The notes below the pieces were generated by a model, which saw only the letters and a list, made by a program, of their open reading frames with translations, searched no databases and was not told where the DNA came from. The translations under genes were made by a program, and so were the position numbers. From Mycobacteriales bacterium (GTDB taxonomy: Bacteria; Actinomycetota; Actinomycetes; Mycobacteriales; CADCTP01), in NCBI GenBank assembly GCA_035995165.1, contig DASYKU010000004.1:1-32291 (forward strand): a DNA stretch of 32,291 nt, read 5' to 3'. Positions 3,778-32,291 of the stretch are shown one piece after another (the first letter of the stretch is position 1; the number at the start of each line of letters is the position of its first letter).

Positions 3778-4181
3778 CCTACACCCAGCTCGCGCTGATC
3801 GGCGTGGCCGGGGCGCTGCTGGTCGACACCGTCGTGCTGCGGACCTGGCTGATCCGGCGCCGGACGTACTGGACCGCGTACACGATCGTGGTGTTCTTCC
3901 AGCTGGTCACCAACGGGATCCTCACCGGCTTCGACATCGTCCGCTACGCCCCGGCCGCGATCCTGGGCTGGCGGATCGCGTACGCGCCGGTGGAGGACCT
4001 GCTGTTCGGGTACGCGATGGTGACGCTGACGCTCTCGACCTGGGTCTGGCTGGGCCGCCGCGGCGTCAGCCGGTCAGCAGGTCGGCCAGCTCGCCCGGCC
4101 GGGCGAGGAACGGCGAGTGGTCGCCGGGGAGCTCGACCACCTCGGCCGGCGCCGCCGACCGGGCCCAGTCCGCGTCGATGA
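3774..4181 (+). CDS. crtYd: Lycopene cyclase subunit, CrtYd type
   Basis: The first 97 or so residues are typical of CrtYd: RRRTYWTAYTIVVFFQLVTNGILTG-type helices, then GWRIAYAPVEDLLFGYAMVTLTLSTW, with the conserved P-x-E-D/E-x-x-F signature of the cyclase fold. It is the partner of CrtYc. After WLGRRGVS (about base 4063) the frame continues for some 38 Arg/Pro/Ala-rich residues that look unlike any cyclase and overlap the oppositely oriented hydrolase gene by 116 bases. Either the tail is a read-through into antisense sequence or an ancestral stop was lost. GTG 3774 is supported by the 4-base overlap. Confidence 0.8.
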   Translation: MTYTQLALIGVAGALLVDTVVLRTWLIRRRTYWTAYTIVVFFQLVTNGILTGFDIVRYAPAAILGWRIAYAPVEDLLFGYAMVTLTLSTWVWLGRRGVSRSAGRPARPAGRGTASGRRGARPPRPAPPTGPSPRR

Positions 4182-4722
4182 TCCTGTCGTCCCGGCAGAG
4201 CAGGTAGGTTCCGGACGGCCGCTCGGCCACCGGGCCGGGTTCGGCCGTGATCCGCCAGTGCTGCGGGCGCAACGCTCCGGCGGCCGCCCGGGCGACCGCC
4301 GGGGGAGAGTCCGGGTAGAGCCACTCGACGGCGGCGTCCGGGAGCCACTGCGTCGAGCCGTCCGGGTTGGCGGTCTGGCCGCGCCCGATCCCGCGGCGGG
4401 TCATCCGTTCGCCGGCCTTCGCGCGCTCGTCCACGCTGCGGCCGGGCTCGGGCAGCATCGCGGCCAGGTAGACGACCCGGCGCACCGGCCGGACGAGCGG
4501 CGCGACCAGGCCGGCCAGCGAGTGCGCGACCAGCACCACGTCGGTCTCGCCGGCCAGCGCGTCGTCGATCACCGCGGCGTACTCGGCCGCGCCGGCCTCC
4601 GGGTCGCCGATCGGCAGGTCCGGCGCGACGCAGCGGTGCCCGCGAGCATTCAGCTCGGCCGCGACCGCATCCCAGCACCAGCCGCCGTGCCAGGCCCCGT
4701 GCACCAGCGCGAAAGTCGCCAT
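4066..4722 (-). CDS. Alpha/beta hydrolase (esterase-like)
   Basis: The 218-residue product begins MATFALVHGAWHGGWCWDAV, the oxyanion HGxxH-type motif of the small alpha/beta hydrolases related to plant methyl esterases and hydroxynitrile lyases. The nucleophile Ser sits in VAHSLAG, the acid is probably the Asp pair in CRDDRIID, and the catalytic His is in GDHSPFLARP near the C-terminus. The triad is complete, so the enzyme should be active; the substrate is unknown. An ATG four codons upstream (4734) is an alternative start. It lies tail-to-tail with crtYd, and the two frames overlap by 116 bases. Confidence 0.82.
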   Translation of the reverse strand: MATFALVHGAWHGGWCWDAVAAELNARGHRCVAPDLPIGDPEAGAAEYAAVIDDALAGETDVVLVAHSLAGLVAPLVRPVRRVVYLAAMLPEPGRSVDERAKAGERMTRRGIGRGQTANPDGSTQWLPDAAVEWLYPDSPPAVARAAAGALRPQHWRITAEPGPVAERPSGTYLLCRDDRIIDADWARSAAPAEVVELPGDHSPFLARPGELADLLTG

Positions 4723-4734
4723 CCCAGCCAGCAT

Positions 4735-5056
4735 CCCACCCGTCAGCGCCCGGGCTGCCGGCGTCGCTCAGCGCCGGCGGCGCGCACCCGCAGGGCCCCG
4801 CTCAGCGGAGGCGCGGCACCCGGCGAGGGCACGCGCTCAGCGCGGGGCACGCACCCGCGGGGCCCGCTCGGCCGGGGCGCGCACCCGGCGGGGCGGAGGA
4901 CTGCGGAGCCCGCGCTCCCGCGGGGGCCCGCTCAGCGGGGCCGCGCACCCGGCCGGGGCGGGGACTGCGGAGCCCGCGCTCCCGCGGGGCGCCGCCCCCG
5001 GGAGCCCGCTCAGCGGGGGCGCACCCGATGGGGCGCGCACCGGCGGGAACCCCCGC
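4735..5056. repeat. Intergenic repeats with six copies of a 9-bp palindrome
   Basis: CGCTCAGCG occurs at 4765, 4799, 4834, 4929, 5007 and 5054; several copies extend to CCGCTCAGCGG. The last copy carries the crtB stop codon. A longer direct repeat (core GGACTGCGGAGCCCGCGCTC) occurs at 4898 and again at 4962. Open frames here are GC-rich artefacts. The hairpins could terminate crtB transcription or act as protein-binding sites. Confidence 0.8.
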
Positions 5057-5971
5057 TCAGCGACGGGCTGCGTACGCGCGCGCCAGACCCGGCACCGCGA
5101 CCCGGATCCGCTGCGCCGGCCCGACCGACACCCGCCGGTCCAGTACCTGGTAGTCGGCCCGCTCGACCTCGTCCAGGATCCCGCCGTAGAGCCGGACGGC
5201 GGTCCGGATGCAGTCCCGGCTGGTCGGGTCGAGCAGCCGGACGCCGGGCGCCGCGGCCCGGTAGAGCTCCCGCGTCCGCGCGATCTCGTACGCCAGCAGC
5301 CGCCGGACCGGCCCGTCCACCACCCCCCGGGCCAACCGCTCCCGGTCGACCCCGAACAGCGCGAGGTCCTCGCCCGGCAGATAGACCCGCCCCCGGCGCA
5401 GGTCCTCGCCGACGTCCCGGATGAAGTTCGACAGCTGGAAGGCGATCCCGAGATCGGCCGCGTACGGCTCGGCGATCTCCCGCGGCACCGTCGGCTCCAG
5501 CACCGGGACCATCTGCAGCCCGATCGCCGCCGCCGACCCCCAGACGTAGGTCAGCAGGTCCTCGTACGTCTCGTAGCCGGAGACCGTGAGGTCCATCCGC
5601 ATCGAGGCGAGGAAGTCCTCGAACAGCCCGAGCGGGATGTCCCAGCGCCGGACGGTGTCCACCACCGCGCGGCTGACCGGGTGGTCGGAGGAGCCGGTCC
5701 GGACCGCCTCCAGGAACCGGCCGCCCCAGTCCCGCAGCCACTCCGCCTTCTCCGCCGGGGTCAGCGTGGAGGCGAGGTCGTCGACGATCTCGTCCGCGTA
5801 CCGGGCGAAGCCGTAGAGCGCGTGCACGTACGGCCGCTTGGACGCGGGCAGCAGCAGCGTGGCCAGGTAGTAGGTCCGCCCGTGGGTCGCGTTCAGGCGC
5901 CGGCAGCGCTCGTACGACTCCCGCAGCGCCGGGTCGGTGATCCCGGCGGCGTCCAGCTCCCGGGCGCTCAC
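5057..5971 (-). CDS. crtB: Phytoene synthase
   Basis: The 304-residue product has the squalene/phytoene synthase fold: NATHGRTYYLATLLLP, the first Asp-rich motif DEIVD (residues 60-64), and the second Asp-rich motif in NFIRDVGEDLRRGRVYLP (DVGED 186-190). It condenses two geranylgeranyl diphosphates to phytoene. The GTG start overlaps the upstream mannosyltransferase stop (TAGTG), so crtB is the last gene of the run crtE, crtI, two glycosyltransferases, crtB. Length and motifs are complete. Confidence 0.95.
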   Translation of the reverse strand: MSARELDAAGITDPALRESYERCRRLNATHGRTYYLATLLLPASKRPYVHALYGFARYADEIVDDLASTLTPAEKAEWLRDWGGRFLEAVRTGSSDHPVSRAVVDTVRRWDIPLGLFEDFLASMRMDLTVSGYETYEDLLTYVWGSAAAIGLQMVPVLEPTVPREIAEPYAADLGIAFQLSNFIRDVGEDLRRGRVYLPGEDLALFGVDRERLARGVVDGPVRRLLAYEIARTRELYRAAAPGVRLLDPTSRDCIRTAVRLYGGILDEVERADYQVLDRRVSVGPAQRIRVAVPGLARAYAARR

Positions 5972-7578
5972 TACACGGAGGCTACCGGCTTCCCGAGATC
6001 GCGCCCGTTGACCGTGATCGGAGGGACGACCTGCGGGTTCACGGTCTCCACGACCCGCTCGGGCGGGCCGTCGGAAGGTTCGCCCGCAGTGCGCCCCAGC
6101 ACCGCGAAGGTGGCGACCGCGGCCGCCGTCGCCATCGCCAGCACCGGCGGGACCTCGAGGAAGAGGTTGGAGCCCTGCGGCGCGATCATCATCGACAGCC
6201 AGAAGCAGGCCCCGGCCGCGACCAGCCCGACCCGGCGGTCCAGCTTCGTCGCGCCGAGCAGCGTCAGCCCCCACAGCACGTACCAGGGCTGCACGACCGG
6301 GCCGAGGACCACGACGACCAGCAGCGCCAGCGCGGCGGCCCGGACCCAGCCGATCCGCCCGGCCTTGAGCCAGAGCCAGAGCAGGATCCCGGCGGTGGCG
6401 ACCTGCCCGATCAGCCGCGCGGCCGAGATCACCGGGTCCTGGTACGTGACGAAGTTGGGGATGCCCCGCAGCACCTCGACGAGCATGCCGATCCCGGTCG
6501 GGATCGACGTCCAGGCCACGACCTGGCCGGAGGCGTTGAGCTGGTTGATCCAGCCGAAGCCGAGCCCGGTCACCCCGGTCAGCAGCGCGATCGTCGCCGC
6601 TGCCACCGCCCCGGTCCGGACGCTGGCCCGCACCAGCACCCAGCGGCCGGTCAGCTGCCGGGCCCAGACCCAGGCCAGGAACGCGACCGCCACCGCGGCC
6701 GGCGCCTTGACCAGCACCGCGGCCGAGCAGAGCACGACCCCGAGCGCGACCCACCGTTCCTCGGTCGCCTCGATCGCGATCGTCAGCCCGGCTACGACCA
6801 GCCCGACCATCAGCGCGTCGTTGTGGCCGCCGGCGATGAAGTGCGCCAGCACCAGCGGGTTGGCGATGCCCAGCCAGATCGCGACCCTGGGGTCGCCGCC
6901 GGCCGCGCGGGCCAGCCGCGGCAGGTACTTCGCGGTCAGCAGCACGCCGGCCACCGCGAGCAGCCGCATGGCGAAGACCGTGGTCACCACCCGGTCGCCG
7001 GTCACCGTGGCCACGGCCCGCCCCAGCCCCAGGAACAGCGGCCCGTACGGCGCGGGGGTGTCGACCCACATCCCGGAGATCTCGTCCAGGAACGGACCCG
7101 GCAATGACACCGGTCCCACGCTGTACGGATCGAGCCCGGCGTGCGCGATCTGGGCCTGGGCGGCGTACGCGTACAGGTCCCGGCTGAAGAGCGGGACGCA
7201 GACCACGAGCGGGGCGGCCCAGAGCCCGGCGATCTTCAGCAGCCGGCCGGGGTCGGTGCCCTCCTCGCGGCGCAGCAGCGCGCGGCCGAGGTAGAGCCAG
7301 GCCATGCCGAGCACGGCCAGGCCGACGTAGACGAACGCGAGCGCGGCCTTCTCGCCGACGCCGTCGCGCAGCACCGCGATCACCGGGGTGCGCTTGACCG
7401 GGTCGTAGACGGGGGGAGCGCCGGCCCCTAGGGAGCCGAGCGCCAGCAGCGCCGAGCCGGCGAAGCCGACCAGCACGACCGTGCGGAGGTGCGCGGTGCC
7501 CCAGCCCGTCCACCGGGTCGTGGCGGCCCGGGCGAGGCGGGTCTCGCGGAGGGCGGCGACGGCCGCCGGGGCCGTCAC
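5971..7578 (-). CDS. Polyprenol-phosphomannose-dependent alpha-1,6-mannosyltransferase (MptA/MptB-like)
   Basis: The 535-residue polytopic membrane protein has about a dozen hydrophobic segments. The signature loop after the first helices reads FSRDLYAYAAQAQIAHAGLDPY, with the acidic residues typical of GT-C mannosyltransferases. Further family motifs are TPAPYGPLFLGLGR, NPLVLAHFIAGGHNDALMVG and VVQPWYVLWGL. Such enzymes extend the mannan core of lipomannan/lipoglycans outside the membrane using polyprenyl-phosphate mannose. GTG 7578 overlaps the preceding stop (GTGA). A possible alternative role, glycosylating another lipid such as the carotenoid, cannot be excluded given the location between crtI and crtB, but the family supports mannan synthesis. 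Confidence 0.85.
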   Translation of the reverse strand: MTAPAAVAALRETRLARAATTRWTGWGTAHLRTVVLVGFAGSALLALGSLGAGAPPVYDPVKRTPVIAVLRDGVGEKAALAFVYVGLAVLGMAWLYLGRALLRREEGTDPGRLLKIAGLWAAPLVVCVPLFSRDLYAYAAQAQIAHAGLDPYSVGPVSLPGPFLDEISGMWVDTPAPYGPLFLGLGRAVATVTGDRVVTTVFAMRLLAVAGVLLTAKYLPRLARAAGGDPRVAIWLGIANPLVLAHFIAGGHNDALMVGLVVAGLTIAIEATEERWVALGVVLCSAAVLVKAPAAVAVAFLAWVWARQLTGRWVLVRASVRTGAVAAATIALLTGVTGLGFGWINQLNASGQVVAWTSIPTGIGMLVEVLRGIPNFVTYQDPVISAARLIGQVATAGILLWLWLKAGRIGWVRAAALALLVVVVLGPVVQPWYVLWGLTLLGATKLDRRVGLVAAGACFWLSMMIAPQGSNLFLEVPPVLAMATAAAVATFAVLGRTAGEPSDGPPERVVETVNPQVVPPITVNGRDLGKPVASV

Positions 7579-10914: not shown

Positions 10915-12027
10915 TCAGACCGCCCGGGTGGTGGCCGCGGCGGCCAGCTCGCGCAGGACCAGGCCGGCGTCCGGGTCGACCGCGGACGCGTCCAGCGCCT
11001 GCACGGCCCGCTCGGTGCAGGCCGCGATCATCGCCTCGACCTCGGCCAGCGCGCCGGTCACCACGATCACCTCGCGCAGCCGCTGCACCCCCGCCGGGTC
11101 CAGGGCCGGGTCGCCCAGCAGCCGCTCCAGCAGCCGGACCTGGGCCGGGCCGCCGCGCTGGGCCGCCAGCGCGACCAGCACGGTCCGCTTGCCCTCGCGC
11201 AGGTCGTCCCCGGCCGGCTTCCCGGTCTCGGCCGGGTCGCCGAACACGCCGAGCACGTCGTCGCGCAGCTGGAACGCCTCGCCCAGCGGCAGCCCGTACG
11301 CCTCGTACGCGGAAAGCAGGGCCCGGTCGGCGCCGGCCAGCGCCGCGCCGAGCTGCAGCGGCCGCAGCACGCTGTAGCGGGCGCTCTTGTACTGGATGAC
11401 GCGCCGGGCCCGCGGCACCGAGCCGCCGCCCATCGCCTGCTCCAGCAGGTCCAGGTACTGGCCACCCATCAGCTCGGTGCGCATCTCGTCGAACAGCGGC
11501 CGGGCCCGCAGCAGCCGGTCCGGCTCCAGCCCGCTGCCGAAGAACATCTCGTCGGTCCAGCCCAGGCAGAGGTCGCCGAGCAGGATGGCCGCGCCGGTGC
11601 CGAACGAGTCCCCGTCGCCGCGCCAGCCCTCAGATGCGTGCAGCGTGCCGAAACGCCGGTGCGCCGCGGGCCGGCCCCGGCGGGTGTCGCTGCGGTCCAT
11701 CACGTCGTCGTGGATCAGCGCGCAGGCCTGGAACAGCTCGAGCGAGGCCGCCGCGGCGACCATCCGGTCGTCGTCGGGCAGGCCGGCGCCGCGCCAGGCC
11801 CAGTAGCCGAATGCCGGCCGCAGCCGCTTGCCGCCGCGCAGCAGCTCCCGGACCGCGCGCACCAGCTCGCCGGTCTCGTAGCCGACCGCGAACAGCCGGG
11901 CGTCCTGCCGGTCCAGGAACGACTCCAGCGCGCCGGCCACCCGTCCGCGCAGGTCCTCCCGCTCCAGCACCGGACCCGGACCGGGGTGCAGCGCCGGTCC
12001 GGTTCGGTCCTGCGTCGAGGTCAACAC
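10915..12027 (-). CDS. crtE: Polyprenyl diphosphate synthase (geranylgeranyl diphosphate synthase type)
   Basis: The 370-residue protein has GGKRLRP (65-71), the first Asp-rich motif DDVMD (107-111), and the second region [13 protein letters not shown] (252-264), where the final Asp of DDxxD is replaced as in actinobacterial IdsA/CrtE enzymes. It should condense isopentenyl units to C20 GGPP for CrtB. GTG 12027 was chosen because GGGAG lies just upstream; TTG 12024 is equally possible. Frames extending further upstream read antisense through the metF start region. M. tuberculosis has a related synthase (IdsA2, Rv2173) beside mptA and a metF-like gene, matching the neighbours here. Confidence 0.9.
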
Positions 12028-12126
12028 ACGCTCCCGGGTCGTGGCGGGCGGTCCGTGCGCGAAGTATCGAGGAGGTCCGGCGGTTCCGCCTGTTGGCGGC
12101 ATCAGGGCCGCACGAGCGGGGCCCGC

Positions 12127-12132
12127 TACGCT
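12127..12132 (+). promoter_or_regulatory. Putative -10 box for leaderless metF
   Basis: TACGCT, seven bases before the metF ATG, with no Shine-Dalgarno in between, fits a leaderless transcript starting at the A of ATG. The 112-bp space to the divergent crtE start would hold both promoters. Confidence 0.5.
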
Positions 12133-12139
12133 GGCCGCC

Positions 12140-13030
12140 ATGACCGGCACGGTGCGGGACCGGCTCGCCGAGAGCGGCCCGACGTTCTCCTTCGAGTTCT
12201 TCCCGCCGAAGACCGACGAGGGCGAGCGCCTGCTCTGGCAGGCCATCCGGCAGCTGGAGTCGCTGCAGCCGTCCTTCGTCTCGGTGACGTACGGCGCGGG
12301 CGGCTCGAACCGGGACCGGGTCGTCGAGATCACCGAGCGGATCGCGACCGAGACCACGCTGCTGCCGATGGCCCACCTCACCGCGGTCGGGCACTCGGTG
12401 GCGGAGCTCCGGCACGTGGTCGGCCGGCTGGCCGGCGCGGGCGTCCGCAACGTGCTGGCGCTGCGCGGCGACCCGCCGGGCGACCCGATGGCCGAGTGGA
12501 CCGCCCACCCCGAGGGCCTGTCGTACGCGGACGAGCTCGTCTCGCTGGTCAAGGCCCACGGCGACTACTGCGTCGGGGTGGCCGCGTTCCCGGAGAAGCA
12601 CCCGCGCTCGCCCGACCTGGAGTCCGACACCCGCCACTTCGTGGCCAAGTGCCGGGCCGGGGCCGACTTCGCGATCACCCAGATGTTCTTCCGGGCCGAG
12701 GACTACCTACGGATGCGGGACCGGGTCGCCGCGCTCGGCTGCGACGTGCCGATCATCGCCGGCATCATGCCGATCACGAACGTCCGCGGCATCGAGCGCT
12801 CGGCCCTGCTCTCCGGCGCGGCGTTCCCGGCCGACCTGGCCGAGGAGCTGCACGCGGTCGAGGACGACCCGGCCGCGGTCCGCCGCGTCGGCGTCGAGCA
12901 CGCCACCGCGCTCTGCGAGCGGCTGCTGGCCGAGGGCGCACCGGGCCTGCACTTCTACACGCTGAACCGGTCCACGGCGACCCGCGAGGTGTACGCCGGG
13001 CTCGGTCTCGAGCGGATGGCCTCCGCCTGA
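12140..13030 (+). CDS. metF: 5,10-methylenetetrahydrofolate reductase
   Basis: The 296-residue TIM-barrel flavoprotein has [14 protein letters not shown] (with catalytic Glu19), [36 protein letters not shown] and [10 protein letters not shown]. These are the substrate- and FAD-binding segments of MetF. It makes 5-methyl-tetrahydrofolate for methionine synthesis. The start at ATG 12140 is fixed by homology and the adjacent -10 box. The next gene begins at or just after its stop. The gene faces crtE, as the metF-like Rv2172c sits beside idsA2 in M. tuberculosis. Confidence 0.93.
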
Positions 13031-28058: not shown

Positions 28059-28077
28059 TCCCTGATCTTTCTCCTGA

Positions 28078-28107
28078 CGACGCCCGGCCCTTCCAGGCCG
28101 GGCGTCG
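28078..28107. terminator. 12-bp GC-rich terminator hairpin after DUF3040
   Basis: CGACGCCCGGCC (28078-28089) pairs exactly with GGCCGGGCGTCG (28096-28107), loop CTTCCA, 20 bases after the DUF3040 stop. Confidence 0.8.
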
Positions 28108-28190
28108 CCCATTCCCCGCCCACTCCCGTCTCCCTGCGAGACACGCTGGCTGCACCGGCTTCCGCCGCCCCGGCGCCGGCCCCCCCGCCG

Positions 28191-28268
28191 TGCGGGTGCC
28201 TTGGGCCGGGTGTCGGCTGTGGTGCGGGTGCCTTGGGCCGGGCGTCGGCTGTGGTGCGGGTGCTGCAG
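28191..28268. repeat. 32-bp direct repeat
   Basis: Copies begin at 28191 and 28223 (starting TGCGGGTGCCTTGGGCCGGG), with a third partial copy at 28255. The unit length is not a multiple of three, so the frame of the overlapping minus-strand gene changes at each copy, scrambling its C-terminus. Confidence 0.85.
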
Positions 28269-28883
28269 GTCACGGTGACTGGCCAGGTCCCGGGGGTCGT
28301 GCGGGTGCCGACGAGCCGGCGCCACGCGATGGCGCCGGCGGATGACGCGGTCTTCGGGTCGAGGCCCTGGGCTGTGGATGGCCGGATTTGTAGTCGACCT
28401 CGATGGAGCAGTCTGCGCCGGATGTAGTGCGGGCGGCCGCGATGGCGACGTTCCCCTGGCCGGTTGGCGGCAGGCTGACGACCGTGACCGTGAACGGCGG
28501 CGCCGGCCGTGGAATCCGGGGACGAGGCGTCGGCGCGGGTAGCCGGGTCCGGGTCGGCTTTCTCGGGGTGGCTGTGACGGTTGGTCGCGGTGGCGGCGGT
28601 GTGGCCGTCGACGGAGGCGGCGGTACCGACGTCGGCGTTCTTGTCCTGGGGAACGGCTGTTGAGCTCGACGGAGCCGCGATCGGCGGGTCGGTTCTCGTG
28701 GGAGGGGAGTCGGAGTCGAGGACTGAGGCGGCCAGGCCGCTGCCGGCACCGAGGGGTCACCAATCCGGCCAGGACTGCGCGGACGGCCGCCGCGCGGCTG
28801 GCAAGCCGAAAGCCCGGAAGGGATCCTCGGCGGAGCCCGACCACGCCAATCCCGACGATCGTCAGTCCGGCCGCGATGAGCAC
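28262..28883 (-). pseudogene. Frameshifted membrane-anchored protein with Pro/Thr-rich linker
   Basis: On the minus strand an N-terminal membrane helix (VLIAAGLTIVGIGVVGLRR, start about 28883) is followed by a Pro/Thr/Ser-rich stretch. A C-terminal domain then reads TVTVVSLPPTGQGNVAIAAA, ADCSIEVDYKSG, and STAQGLDPKTASSAGAIAW then TRTTPGTWPVTVTC. The YKSG...TPGTWPVTVTC domain is known from secreted actinobacterial proteins, but the two halves lie in different frames. One C appears missing at about 28380, where GGCC-ATCC is found instead of an expected GGCCCATCC. Codon usage suggests one or two further shifts near 28510 and 28770. The domain is recognisable, so this is a recent pseudogene or a sequencing error. 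Confidence 0.68.
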
Positions 28884-29617
28884 CCTCCTACGGAGGAAGG
28901 CCTGCCGGAGCGCCAGTTCACCGACGTAAGGCTCAGGTCTTTCCTTCCCCTCAAGCTGAGCGACACGCCATGGACGCAGGCGACGCAGCTGTCGTCGACC
29001 GATCTCCCTCGACGGGTCCCCGTGGCCCGCGCCCAGTGCGGCATGATCGGTCGTTCGGGCGAGGCAGGGTGTACGCATGGCTCGGGTCCCTGGTGGTGCG
29101 CGTCGGGCGAGGACTCAGGGCCACTGCTGCAGCACACGAGCGGCCGCGCCCGTCGTTGCCTATGGCGTCGCGAAGGGGTCGTGCTCCGAGAGGATCTTGT
29201 CCAGACGGGCCTGTCAGCGGTCCGAATGCGTGAGTAGAACTGCTCGTCCACAGCAGACCGATGACAGTCCGGGCCCCGCCCGCTGCGCGGTGGGAGAGTG
29301 CGTTTGCGTACCCAAGTCCTACCCCGCCTCGGTCATATCGGGTCATGCACCCCGCGCGCTCGGCTTACGGCATGGTGCGCGGACGGCGTCAGGATCGAAT
29401 ATGGGACACCACACACTCCCGGCCTGGCGGGCACCCGGTGACGGGCGCCCGGACCGGTGGGCACCAGTGGGCAGCACCGGCTGAACACCGGTAGGTCCTC
29501 TCCCATCAGTTGCCCATCGGTTGCCCACAGCGGTGGGCGATGTTCTGCAGTGCCTGCCCGTTCCTGTCGGCGAGGCGTCCTGCAGAGGGGGAACCGTGAT
29601 CCGTCGGGCGAGTCGCC
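28884..29617. other. Low-coding intergenic stretch
   Basis: Somewhat lower in GC than the surrounding genes. Open frames on both strands give products rich in Arg, Ser and Cys without recognisable domains or ribosome binding sites. The only structures seen are short repeats of GTGGGC/GCCCAC, the best being GCCCAC-AGCG-GTGGGC at 29523-29538. The promoter for the 29618 gene is presumably here but I could not place it. Confidence 0.55.
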
Positions 29618-30256
29618 ATGCGTAGCGTCTTTGTCGGTACGCCGGCGTTCCTGGGCCGGATCGACGGCGAGACCCGCTGTGCGTTCTGGGCTGAGGAGCC
29701 GGTCGACCATGACTTCGACCCGCTGCTGCTCATCCCGGTCGACTTCGCACTCACCCCGTCGGCGGCGGCGGCGAAGGACATCTCCTGGGCCGACGTGCAA
29801 GTCGACGACTGCTTCACCGGGCCGAATGGTGCGGTGAGCGGTTCCACCCTCGGGCCGGGCTGGCCGGAGTTGCAGCTCGGCGGTGCGGTGTACCTGGAGT
29901 CCGGATTCCGTGAGTCGTTGCCTGCCGGGCTGCGCCCCGCCTGCCCCCCGGCCGGGATGAGCGCGCAGCCGTACGAGTGCATGTCGGTCGTCTACTGGCC
30001 GGACATCGACGATCCCCGCGCCGGCAAGCGTTATGCCGGTCACTGCGCGGAGATCCTGGAGGAGCGGGGCTCACTGGCGCACGTGGCGGTCCACCCACCC
30101 GGCAAGTCGGAGCAGCCGGACGTACGGCCGGTGACGATGTGGATCGACCTCGCATCGTCCGAGCAGTGTGACGCCGGCGTCGAGAGTCTCACCACGATAG
30201 GCACCGGGGCCGCGCCCAAGCGCGGAGCGCTCTTCTTGATCAGCGGCCAGCTGTGA
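29618..30256 (+). CDS. Hypothetical protein upstream of the small-peptide array
   Basis: The 212-residue protein starts MRSVFVGTPAFLGRIDGETR and has no signal peptide, membrane helix or family I recognise. It contains several cysteines, in VDDCFTG, RPACPPAG, YECMSVV and GHCAEIL, and an acidic N-terminal half. Codon usage is normal for this genome, so it is likely real. It ends 44 bases before the first A peptide with no terminator between, so it probably belongs to the same transcription unit. The Shine-Dalgarno is weak. Function unknown. Confidence 0.65.
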   Translation: MRSVFVGTPAFLGRIDGETRCAFWAEEPVDHDFDPLLLIPVDFALTPSAAAAKDISWADVQVDDCFTGPNGAVSGSTLGPGWPELQLGGAVYLESGFRESLPAGLRPACPPAGMSAQPYECMSVVYWPDIDDPRAGKRYAGHCAEILEERGSLAHVAVHPPGKSEQPDVRPVTMWIDLASSEQCDAGVESLTTIGTGAAPKRGALFLISGQL

Positions 30257-30300: not shown

Positions 30301-30588
30301 ATGGACAGCACTCCTGCGCGCCGAGCCGCCGCGGCCGACCGGCCCGGCCGGCTCCGGGCGGCCGCGCTTCTCACCGCCGTCCCGATCGCCTTCACCGTCG
30401 GCGCGGCCGTCGCAACACCGTTCGGCTCCCTCGGATCAGCCCGGCCGCTCGACAGCAGTCCACACCTGACCGCGCAGACCGGTACAGCCGCGGACTGCCA
30501 CGGAACCAGGCCACGGGCCAGGCTCGCCGCCGAGGTGACCGTCTCCACGGTCGGCGCACTGAAGTGGCCCGGATGCGCGGGCGACTAG
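30301..30588 (+). CDS. Family A small peptide, copy 1
   Basis: The 95-residue peptide has a charged N-terminus (MDSTPARRAAAADRPGRLR) and one hydrophobic segment (about 20-41, AALLTAVPIAFTVGAAVA). The exported or C-terminal part has two Cys (66 in ADCHG, 92 in WPGC), with LAAEVTVSTVGALKWP between. The pattern suggests a membrane-anchored or cleaved secreted peptide with a possible disulfide. AAGGA precedes the ATG. By hand alignment about 82 of 95 residues match copy 3. No known family recognised. Confidence 0.75.
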   Translation: MDSTPARRAAAADRPGRLRAAALLTAVPIAFTVGAAVATPFGSLGSARPLDSSPHLTAQTGTAADCHGTRPRARLAAEVTVSTVGALKWPGCAGD

Positions 30589-30686: not shown

Positions 30687-30866
30687 ATGGAACCCGAACT
30701 CGATCGTCCCGCCTCCGCCGATGCGCCCGACACGCCGCCGCCCCCCGAGACCCGGTCGTCACATCGGCGGCGATTCGAGAGGGCCTTCAACGCGTCGGCG
30801 TTGCTCAGCACCACCGCGGTGCTCGTCGCGATCGACCCCAAGATCCCGCCGTTCAGAGCCGACTGA
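30687..30866 (+). CDS. Family B small peptide, copy 1
   Basis: The 59-residue peptide has an acidic, Pro-rich, poorly conserved N-terminal half (residues 1-30) and a C-terminal part nearly identical to the other B copy: AFN, then ALLSTTAVLVAIDPK, ending PPFRAD. The hydrophobic stretch could insert in or lie on a membrane. The variable-leader plus conserved-tail layout recalls peptide precursors, which is inference only. GAAGGAG lies 5 bases before the ATG. No known family recognised. Confidence 0.72.
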   Translation: MEPELDRPASADAPDTPPPPETRSSHRRRFERAFNASALLSTTAVLVAIDPKIPPFRAD

Positions 30867-30898: not shown

Positions 30899-31165
30899 AT
30901 GGACAGAACTCCTCCGCGGCCGAGTCGGGCCCGGGCGACCGCACTTCTCACCGCCGTCCCGGTCGCGTTCGCGGTCGGCGCGGTGGTCGCATCACCGTTC
31001 GGCGCGCACGGATCAGCCGGGCGGCTCGACGGCACTCCTCGCCTGTCGGCCCAGACCAGCATGTTCGACGACTGCCACGGAACCAGGCCACAGGCCAGGC
31101 TCGCCGCCGAGGTGACCGTCTCCACGGTCGGCGCACTGAAGTGGCCCCTCTGCGGGGGCGACTAG
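30899..31165 (+). CDS. Family A small peptide, copy 2
   Basis: The 88-residue peptide lacks about seven residues in the charged N-terminus compared with copies 1 and 3 (MDRTPPRPSRARATALLTAV). It keeps the hydrophobic segment and the C-terminal DCHGTRPQARLAAEVTVS and LKWPLCGGD with both Cys. It is the most divergent A copy, so it is not merely a very recent duplicate. Its start lies 32 bases after the B1 stop. Confidence 0.75.
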   Translation: MDRTPPRPSRARATALLTAVPVAFAVGAVVASPFGAHGSAGRLDGTPRLSAQTSMFDDCHGTRPQARLAAEVTVSTVGALKWPLCGGD

Positions 31166-31250: not shown

Positions 31251-31430
31251 GTGGACGCCGACCTCGATCATCCCGGCCCCGCCGAGGCGTCGGACCTGCC
31301 CGCGCCGACCAGCATCCGGCCGTCGCCTCTGGTGCGTCTGAGGACGGCCTTCAACACGGCCGCGTTACTCAGCACCACCGCGGTGCTCGTCGCGATCGAC
31401 CCGAAGAACCCGCCGTTCAGAGCCGACTGA
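31251..31430 (+). CDS. Family B small peptide, copy 2
   Basis: The 59-residue peptide from GTG 31251 has a changed N-terminal half (MDADLDHPGPAEASDLPAP) but the same C-terminal AFN, ALLSTTAVLVAIDPK and PPFRAD as copy 1. The identical length and the shift of variation to the N-terminus support selection on the tail. The sequence CGAAGGAGCCACC just before the start matches that before copy 1. It is missed by simple ATG-only searches because it starts with GTG. Confidence 0.72.
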   Translation: MDADLDHPGPAEASDLPAPTSIRPSPLVRLRTAFNTAALLSTTAVLVAIDPKNPPFRAD

Positions 31431-31461: not shown

Positions 31462-31749
31462 ATGGACAGCACTACGGCCCGCCGAGCCGCCGCGGCCGAC
31501 CGGCTCGGCCGGCTCCGGGCGGCCGCGCTTCTCACCGCCGTCCCGATCGCCTTCACCGTCGGCGCGGCCGTCGCAACACCATTCGGCGCGCTCGGATCAG
31601 CCCGGCCTCTCGACAGCGGCCCACACCTGACGGCCCAGACCAGCATGTTCGCGGACTGCCACGGAGCGAGGCCCCAGGCAACGCTCGCCGCCGAGGTGAC
31701 CGTCTCAGCGGTCGGCTCGCTGAAGTGGCCGGATTGTGCCGGGGACTAA
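31462..31749 (+). CDS. Family A small peptide, copy 3
   Basis: The 95-residue copy is close to copy 1, with the same hydrophobic segment, Cys66 in ADCHG and Cys92 in WPDC. Its TAA lies two bases before the ATG of the caspase-like gene, so that gene is probably translationally coupled to it. Differences from copy 1 cluster around the first Cys and in the C-terminal third. Confidence 0.75.
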   Translation: MDSTTARRAAAADRLGRLRAAALLTAVPIAFTVGAAVATPFGALGSARPLDSGPHLTAQTSMFADCHGARPQATLAAEVTVSAVGSLKWPDCAGD

Positions 31750-31751
31750 AG

Positions 31752-32291
31752 ATGATGACGGCTCCGCCATTTCGGTACGCACGGCTGGTGGACACGACGA
31801 TGTCGTCGCTCAACGTCGCCTCGCCGGACTGCGCGGAGCCGTTCTACCGCGGTCGGCTCGCGCGCTGCAGGAACCTGCAGCGCGCGGGTTCGCTCGCCGA
31901 ACTCCGGGAGATCCTCGACCGTCGCGTCGCCGACGTCGCCGACGTCGCCGACGTCGCCGCCTCGCCGGCGACGCTGGACCTCATCGGCCACTCGACCCGC
32001 GACCACCATCTGCTGCGCCTCGGCGCCACACCCATCGACATGCTCGACCGGCAGGTGGCGCGCTTCTTCTCGGCGCTGGCCGAGGACCAGCTCCTGCCGC
32101 GTCAGCAGATCGTCGCGGTGCGCCTGCTCGGCTGCGAGACCGCGGTGACGGACGGCGGTCAACGAACGCTGCGCATGCTCGCGCACACACTCAACCTGCC
32201 CGTCTACGGGACGTCCGTTCGGCTGCTCAAGAGCCATTCCAACGCCGACGGCTTCAATCCGGCTTTCTCCCACATCCTGGTCGAGGCCTCG
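31752..32291 (+). CDS. Caspase-like (clan CD / CHAT-type) peptidase-like protein, 3' end outside window
   Basis: Open from ATG 31752 (or 31755) to the window end, 180 residues. The pattern is that of CHAT/DUF4347-type caspase-like folds: a hydrophobic strand ending in His (TLDLIGHST, His80), a loop LLRLGATPID, then a strand ending in Gly-Cys (VAVRLLGCETA, Cys128), followed by LPVYGTSVRL. The His-Cys dyad spacing (48 residues) fits. The residue after His is Ser rather than the more common Gly. An in-frame VADVADVADV segment (59-69) precedes the domain. It begins two bases after the last A peptide. Peptidase activity and the peptides as substrates are inference. Confidence 0.68.
   Translation, partial: MMTAPPFRYARLVDTTMSSLNVASPDCAEPFYRGRLARCRNLQRAGSLAELREILDRRVADVADVADVAASPATLDLIGHSTRDHHLLRLGATPIDMLDRQVARFFSALAEDQLLPRQQIVAVRLLGCETAVTDGGQRTLRMLAHTLNLPVYGTSVRLLKSHSNADGFNPAFSHILVEAS
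31926..31961 (+). repeat. 9-bp in-frame repeats in the caspase-like gene
   Basis: GTCGCCGAC occurs three times in a row (31926, 31935, 31944), then a variant at 31953, encoding Val-Ala-Asp repeats before the catalytic domain. Length may vary between strains. Confidence 0.85.

What the first reader, a model, noticed from the sequence alone, without database searches (positions are those of the whole stretch)
31752..32291. Truncated-by-window caspase-like gene with His80/Cys128 dyad
GHST and LLGCETA follow hydrophobic strands with the loop and spacing of CHAT/DUF4347 peptidase-like domains. The residue after His is Ser instead of the common Gly, so it could be a divergent active subfamily or an inactive one.
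Basis: partly seen in the sequence, partly recalled or inferred. Interest (0 to 1): 0.7.

Follow-up and report, generated by a model that had tools for sequence, protein, structure and literature searches.

The report
Caspase-like protease beside tagged mini-peptides
At the end of this contig lies a small stand-alone caspase-type protease gene, almost complete, that closes a compact gene set of five tiny peptides sharing one ending; the same set occurs in a bacterium of another phylum, which suggests an undescribed peptide-making or peptide-signalling system.

Summary
The motifs are real. Frame 31752..32291 (+) encodes GH80ST and LLGC128ETA. The contig itself ends at 32291. A relative in a Pyrinomonadaceae MAG (L035; 67% identical over the core) is complete at 163 aa, keeps both residues, and suggests that only about three residues are missing here.

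A two-sequence AlphaFold model of the relative (mean pLDDT 67, one usable model of five) matches clan CD cysteine peptidases best: T6SS Tce1, SAVED-CHAT, C80-type domains. No sequence profile places it in CHAT, DUF4347 or C80.

The main result is the neighbourhood. Both loci carry the same cassette: a 212-aa unknown protein (73% identical, gap-free), a tandem run of small peptides, then the caspase-like gene. All nine peptides (five here, four in L035) end in K-x-P-x-x-x-[G/A]-D-COOH. Genome, plasmid, phage and viral searches found no third copy.

Best reading: a rare, horizontally moved peptide-maturation or signalling cassette whose caspase-fold enzyme acts on the tagged peptides. Anatomy is well supported; enzyme-substrate pairing and function are inferred. 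Novelty: new variant of a known kind (peptidase plus C-terminally tagged small precursors).

The parts
29618..30256 (+). P5: 212-aa protein of unknown family, first gene of the cassette
   Evidence: translation; 73% identical, gap-free over 212 aa to L035:5047-5685; no Pfam/NCBIfam/PADLOC/PHROG family
30301..30588 (+). Peptide A1, 95 aa: basic N-terminus, hydrophobic segment, tail ending KWPGCAGD-COOH (tag codons 30562-30585)
30687..30866 (+). Peptide B1, 59 aa, ending KIPPFRAD-COOH (tag codons 30840-30863)
30899..31165 (+). Peptide A2, 88 aa, ending KWPLCGGD-COOH (tag codons 31139-31162)
31251..31430 (+). Peptide B2, 59 aa (GTG start), ending KNPPFRAD-COOH (tag codons 31404-31427)
31462..31749 (+). 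Peptide A3, 95 aa, ending KWPDCAGD-COOH (tag codons 31723-31746)
31752..32291 (+). Stand-alone caspase-like (clan CD-like) cysteine peptidase gene, cut by the contig end about 3 residues before its stop; alternative start 31800
31989..31991 (+). Predicted catalytic His80 (GHST)
32133..32135 (+). Predicted catalytic Cys128 (LLGCETA)

Best explanation
The finding is the last gene seen of a compact, rarely found and probably horizontally moved cassette: P5 (212 aa), then a tandem run of small leader-tail peptides, then a stand-alone caspase-fold cysteine peptidase. SHOWN: the gene order in two phyla, the conserved His/Cys motifs, the shared C-terminal tag K-x-P-x-x-x-[G/A]-D-COOH on nine of nine peptides, a hydrophobic segment in each peptide with a positively charged N-terminal part in seven of nine. 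INFERRED: the peptidase is active and the tagged peptides are its substrates; the likeliest action is cleavage at the tag (for instance after the invariant Lys, freeing a heptapeptide xPxxx[G/A]D), or recognition of the acidic carboxyl end; the peptides pass the membrane through their hydrophobic segment and the product works as an exported signal or small toxin; P5 is a partner (modifying, binding or receptor protein) of the peptides.
For: Same three-part order in window and L035. P5 73% and peptidase 67% (core) identical between the two. Of 386 open segments of at least 30 codons in the window, 5 end in [G/A]D; these are the five peptides and all have the full tag; in L035 4 of 189 segments have it. 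Tag is ungapped while A and B sequences otherwise differ. L035 P5 and peptidase genes have GC 0.651 and 0.628 against 0.577-0.578 in the flanking TPR-CHAT genes, pointing to transfer. Fold: best Z values are clan CD peptidases, 11.4 to 7.1, over 139-151 residues. A Shine-Dalgarno-like AAGGA or AGGA precedes all nine peptide starts; A3 and the peptidase are 2 nt apart. Published parallel: small, fast-diverging proteins with a conserved C-terminal peptide next to a peptidase (PMC7159879, section 24 read). Prokaryotic caspase homologues (orthocaspases) cleave after positive residues (PMC6426788, abstract in search listing).
Against: Only two loci are known, so gene order rests on n = 2. Sequence profiles do not recognise the peptidase. 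The model is of middling confidence (mean pLDDT 67.4; the other four models 33-46); Foldseek gave no match at E <= 0.001 and ranked PLP aminotransferases first, and an unrelated fold (ATP-citrate lyase, Z 7.0) follows the tenth row closely. The peptidase shows no signal peptide (best Kyte-Doolittle 17-residue mean 1.2) while the peptide tails should end up outside, so enzyme and tag would have to meet before export. No transporter, receptor or modifying enzyme of a known family is in the cassette. dN/dS of the peptides is mixed (0.28-0.84 among A copies, 1.2 for B).
Confidence: 0.45

Rival explanations
1. Peptide pheromone cassette: the small proteins are Phr/PapR-like precursors (recalled examples) whose last seven or so residues are the signal, secreted by the general pathway and trimmed by host peptidases; the caspase-like protein is a receptor, a pseudo-protease or a target rather than the processor.
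For: Hydrophobic segment and short C-terminal tail of 10-14 residues in B1, B2 and p1-p4; several copies with variable residues inside a fixed frame.
Against: A-type peptides have 57-residue tails with two cysteines; no known peptide receptor family in the cassette; His and Cys are both kept.
Confidence: 0.25
2. Defence or cell-death cassette in the manner of caspase plus membrane effector (bacterial gasdermin or EACC1-caspase systems): the peptides are membrane-active and the enzyme releases them by cutting off the charged tail.
For: Each peptide has one hydrophobic segment and a conserved tail end; EACC1-caspase systems pair a small single-helix protein with a caspase (PMC7159879 section 33 read); L035 cassette lies between two TPR-CHAT genes; patchy distribution.
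Against: No PADLOC hit; no sensor or nucleotide-binding partner among the cassette genes; N-terminal leaders look like export signals, which would put the tail outside.
Confidence: 0.2
3. The caspase-like protein is a catalytically dead scaffold or binding protein; the peptides are unrelated passengers of a horizontally moved block.
For: Ser follows the His instead of Gly; no biochemical data; only two loci.
Against: His, Cys and their surrounding blocks are identical in two phyla; peptide tag and order are kept although the peptides have diverged.
Confidence: 0.1

Closest known systems
FxSxx-COOH / RxD / acidic peptide-processing systems (Kaur et al. 2020, PMC7159879)
   Same: Small fast-diverging proteins with a conserved C-terminal peptide, encoded next to a peptidase gene, in actinobacteria
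   Different: There the peptidase is a zincin-like metallopeptidase, often with radical SAM and vWA-MoxR partners; here it is a caspase-fold protein, the tag is KxPxxx[G/A]D, the peptides are in tandem and P5 is new. B1/B2 end in RAD, which fits a loose RxD, the other seven do not
EACC1-caspase two-gene systems (PMC7159879)
   Same: 5' gene(s) for small protein(s) with one hydrophobic helix, 3' gene for a caspase-superfamily peptidase
   Different: There the caspase carries large C-terminal effector domains; here it is about 163-180 aa and stands alone, with a C-terminal peptide tag on the partners
CHAT peptidases (PF12770; SAVED-CHAT, TPR-CHAT)
   Same: His then Cys about 46-48 residues apart (48 here, 46 in the L035 TPR-CHATs), the letters CETA after the strand, fold match Z 9.1 to SAVED-CHAT
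   Different: No profile match; GHS instead of HG; no TPR or other regulatory domain
Peptidase C80-type autoprocessing domains (PF11713)
   Same: Weak Pfam hit over the His-Cys region (E 0.24) and fold matches Z 8.4-7.1
   Different: Far below the curated cut-off (12.1 against 23.8 bits); not part of a large protein; no sign of autoprocessing
Tce1 (Hcp3-Tce1 complex, PDB 9qpe)
   Same: Best structural match of the relative's model, Z 11.4, 150 residues, rmsd 3.5
   Different: A T6SS-associated protein, 15% identical; no T6SS context seen here. Its function was not looked up

Membership tests
Clan CD (caspase fold) cysteine peptidases | Alpha/beta caspase fold with His and Cys after neighbouring strands | tested here: met
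   Model of the 67%-identical relative: top ten VIA rows are Tce1, SAVED-CHAT, four RTX-type C80 entries and four clostridial C80 entries (Z 11.4-7.1); C11, procaspase-7, legumain at 6.7-6.0. Model only of middling confidence
Clan CD (caspase fold) cysteine peptidases | His and Cys close enough to act together | not testable with these tools
CHAT (PF12770) | Profile match above the curated cut-off | tested here: not met
   No CHAT row at E up to 10 for P0002 or its relative; hhalign with two L035 CHAT domains probability 0.2, E 0.39, out of register
DUF4347 (PF14252) | Profile match above the curated cut-off | tested here: not met
   No row at E up to 10; family search rang in 0 of 226 class genomes and 0 of 14 controls, which says nothing on absence
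Peptidase C80 (PF11713) | Profile match above the curated cut-off | tested here: not met
   12.1 bits against 23.8, E 0.24, for P0002 only; none for the relative
Peptidase C80 (PF11713) | Activation by inositol hexakisphosphate and self-cleavage (recalled) | not testable with these tools
   Needs biochemistry
FxSxx-COOH-type peptide-processing system | Small variable proteins with a conserved C-terminal peptide | tested here: met
   Nine of nine peptides share K-x-P-x-x-x-[G/A]-D-COOH
FxSxx-COOH-type peptide-processing system | FxSxx, RxD or acidic tag | tested here: not met
   Two of nine (B1, B2) end RAD; none has FxSxx or four acidic residues in a row at the end
FxSxx-COOH-type peptide-processing system | Adjacent zincin-like metallopeptidase (with rSAM, vWA-MoxR partners) | tested here: inconclusive
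   None among the cassette genes, but the window contig ends inside the cassette's last gene
EACC1-caspase system | EACC1 domain in the 5' gene and an effector domain behind the caspase | tested here: inconclusive
   No profile hit for the peptides; I did not establish that the libraries hold an EACC1 model; the relative's peptidase ends after the core at 163 aa

The most novel reading that the evidence does not exclude
An undescribed class of peptide system, defined by tandem micro-proteins with a K-x-P-x-x-x-[G/A]-D-COOH tag, a stand-alone caspase-fold protease that matures or ligates them, and the P5 protein, which has moved between an actinomycete-like host and Acidobacteriota as one unit.
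Probability: 0.45. Interest if true: 0.75.

Novelty: new variant of a known kind. Interest (0 to 1): 0.6.

Why it matters
Caspase-type enzymes in bacteria are mostly known inside large defence or self-processing proteins (recalled). A minimal one that travels with a battery of tiny tagged peptides comes with ready-made candidate substrates, so both its specificity and the purpose of the peptides can be tested directly. If true, it adds a caspase-based branch to the bacterial systems that release or modify C-terminally tagged peptides.

Tried and rejected
Single-sequence AlphaFold of P0002: mean pLDDT 38, discarded. Profile libraries: PHROG hit at E 0.066 and PDB sequence hit at E 0.91 to Cas11 taken as chance; P5 profile against PDB: none.

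More relatives: P0002 in 101 near genomes: own only. In 394 genomes of the class: own plus two at 2.3e-4 and 4.4e-4, rejected because I saw no protein with the GH and GC motifs among the frames there. Peptide A1 (P0007) in 246 class genomes: own copies plus 14 genomes at E 0.001-0.01, not followed one by one and taken as chance for low-complexity leader sequence. P5 profile in 396 genomes of the relative's phylum: 1 (the MAG itself); in 396 genomes of the window's phylum: 1 (own). Peptidase profile in 226 genomes of the relative's phylum: 20 genomes at E <= 0.1, one of them the MAG; of the 20 other loci I read 14, none had both the GH and the GC motif. First GTDB scan with the whole P0002: 591 pattern stretches, none confirmed; second with the core: 232 stretches, 1 confirmed, L035. 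These scans need exact 8-residue matches and would miss diverged relatives. Plasmids with P0002 and P0005, phages with P0005, viral contigs with A1 and A2: none.

Continuation of the gene: searching the genome with 31752-32291 showed no overlapping contig end. MraZ lies on contig C67; its far end holds inverted repeats, not the rest of the gene as far as I could see. Rfam: nothing. Promoter scan: nothing. Spacer RNA folds: nothing notable (z -0.75, -1.97, 1.10). CHAT relation by sequence: pairwise scores beat most shuffles for the window protein (4 and 1 of 300 as good) but in the wrong register, and not for the relative (36 and 50 of 300).

Full report
Observation. GC by codon position is 0.71/0.48/0.89, a coding pattern. 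The window is the whole of contig 4 of a 5.37-Mb draft genome, so the truncation is an assembly end. No other contig was seen to overlap the end.

Surroundings. Immediately upstream lie three copies of a 297-base and two copies of a 210-base repeat. They are genes: A1 (30301-30588), A2 (30899-31165), A3 (31462-31749) for peptides of 88-95 aa, alternating with B1 (30687-30866) and B2 (31251-31430) for peptides of 59 aa. Upstream of them is a 212-aa gene, P5 (29618-30256). The A3 stop and the first ATG of the caspase-like gene are 2 nt apart. dN and dS between A copies are 0.08/0.28, 0.17/0.20 and 0.17/0.41, and 0.26/0.22 for B. None of these proteins has a Pfam or NCBIfam family at a meaningful level, nor PADLOC or PHROG (P0002, A3 and P5 only); the best is Peptidase_C80 for the caspase-like protein at E 0.24, 12.1 bits against a cut-off of 23.8. 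The neighbours further upstream are ordinary: SAV_6107-like HEPN, methyltransferase, DNA polymerase IV type (IMS), DUF3040.

A relative in another phylum. A scan of 84,980 species genomes with the core of the protein confirmed one relative: L035, contig JAMQPH010000006.1 of a Pyrinomonadaceae MAG, 67% identical over the core. It is complete at 163 aa and ends three residues after the last residue of the window protein. Upstream of it stand four tandem small genes (5718-5885, 5912-6109, 6136-6306, 6333-6524) and a P5 homologue of exactly 212 aa, 73% identical without a gap. So the order P5, small peptides, caspase-like gene is kept between the two loci. In L035 the P5 and caspase-like genes have GC 0.651 and 0.628, against 0.577 and 0.578 in the two TPR-CHAT genes on either side, which suggests transfer from a richer donor; the peptide array itself is at 0.559 and does not share this. 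In the window the cassette has GC 0.707 against 0.75 overall, but another stretch of the window is as low (22-23 kb), so this side is weak.

The peptide tag. Aligned, all nine peptides end in the same ungapped octapeptide pattern K-x-P-x-x-x-[G/A]-D-COOH: KWPGCAGD, KWPLCGGD, KWPDCAGD, KIPPFRAD, KNPPFRAD; KRPLIGGD, KRPIVGGD, KRPIQGGD, KNPPGHGD. Of 386 open segments of 30 or more codons in the window, in all six frames, 5 end in [G/A]D and these are the five peptides, all with the full pattern; of 189 in L035, 5 end in [G/A]D and 4 have the full pattern. Each peptide has a hydrophobic segment (best 17-residue Kyte-Doolittle mean 1.7-2.3). The part before it is net positive in seven of nine and slightly negative in B1 and B2; the tail behind it is 10-14 residues in B and L035 peptides and 57 in A. 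With the last eight residues removed, B2 still resembles three of the four L035 peptides (0 or 1 of 500 shuffles as good; the fourth not, 304 of 500), A1 resembles p2 and p3 (0 and 4 of 500) but not p1 (91 of 500), and A and B do not resemble each other (116 to 385 of 500, which tried 20 chosen pairs). So the families may share a leader as well as the tag, but A and B are far apart.

Fold. A single-sequence model of P0002 failed (mean pLDDT 38). With the two sequences aligned, the relative gave one usable model of five (mean pLDDT 67.4, pTM 0.69; the others 46-33). Strand 53-58 runs into Gly-His60 and strand 100-106 into Gly-Cys108. VIA-align puts Tce1 (Z 11.4), SAVED-CHAT (9.1) and eight C80-type entries (8.4-7.1) in the first ten rows, and C11, procaspase-7 and legumain at 6.7-6.0. 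Against this, unrelated ATP-citrate lyase stands at 7.0, and Foldseek itself had no match at E <= 0.001, with PLP aminotransferases first. I take the clan CD fold as likely, not proved. By sequence the protein is not a member of CHAT, DUF4347 or C80.

Distribution. Besides the two loci, nothing was found in 101 near genomes and 394 class genomes (P0002, after rejecting two matches as chance), 396 genomes of the relative's phylum and 396 of the window's phylum (P5), 226 genomes of the relative's phylum (peptidase, 14 of 20 weak loci read), plasmids, phages (P5 only) or viral contigs. The one other genome of the genus that was searched lacks the gene. A rare and scattered cassette kept at 67-73% identity between phyla fits horizontal movement.

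How it may work. Shown: the parts, their order, the tag and the conserved His/Cys blocks. Inferred: that the enzyme is active, that the tagged peptides are its substrates, and that cleavage lies at the tag. Orthocaspases cut after positively charged residues (PMC6426788, abstract in the listing); a cut after the invariant Lys would free a heptapeptide xPxxx[G/A]D. The published analogue is the peptide-processing system in which a metallopeptidase releases a conserved C-terminal peptide from a variable small protein, thought to be a toxin or signal (PMC7159879, sections 24 and 33 read in full; passages). The chief difficulty is place: the enzyme has no export signal, while the peptide tails should end outside.

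Print. Searches for the tag, the motif block, the contig prefix and the MAG name found no paper; searches joining caspase-like or CHAT with precursor peptides, C-terminal motifs or FxSxx showed no such cassette in the listings. The library holds open-licence papers only, so this is not proof of absence.

Verdict. The more interesting finding is the conserved cassette of tagged mini-peptides, P5 and a minimal caspase-like enzyme.

Noticed in passing
L035:10-3180 (-) and L035:7113-9173 (-): The relative's cassette sits between two TPR-CHAT genes whose CHAT domains are 80% identical to each other, as if inserted between duplicated genes.
   Followed up: partly
L035:3306-3743, 4040-4348, 4491-4874 (+): Three related small, probably secreted proteins without a Pfam family stand just before the cassette in L035; I saw no counterpart in the window.
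   Followed up: partly
window 28060-29617: A stretch of about 1.5 kb between DUF3040 and P5 without a convincing gene and with lower GC (0.711); one 218-aa frame there has no Pfam family.
   Followed up: partly
L034 (G000:C67) 11950-12367: The end of the contig that carries mraZ holds nested inverted repeats, including a 16-base pair of arms, the kind of sequence at which assemblies break.
   Followed up: partly
window 30562-30585, 31139-31162, 31723-31746: A-type peptides put a cysteine inside the tag (KWPxC[A/G]GD) and a second one earlier in the tail, so a disulphide ring or a thioether is possible.
   Followed up: no
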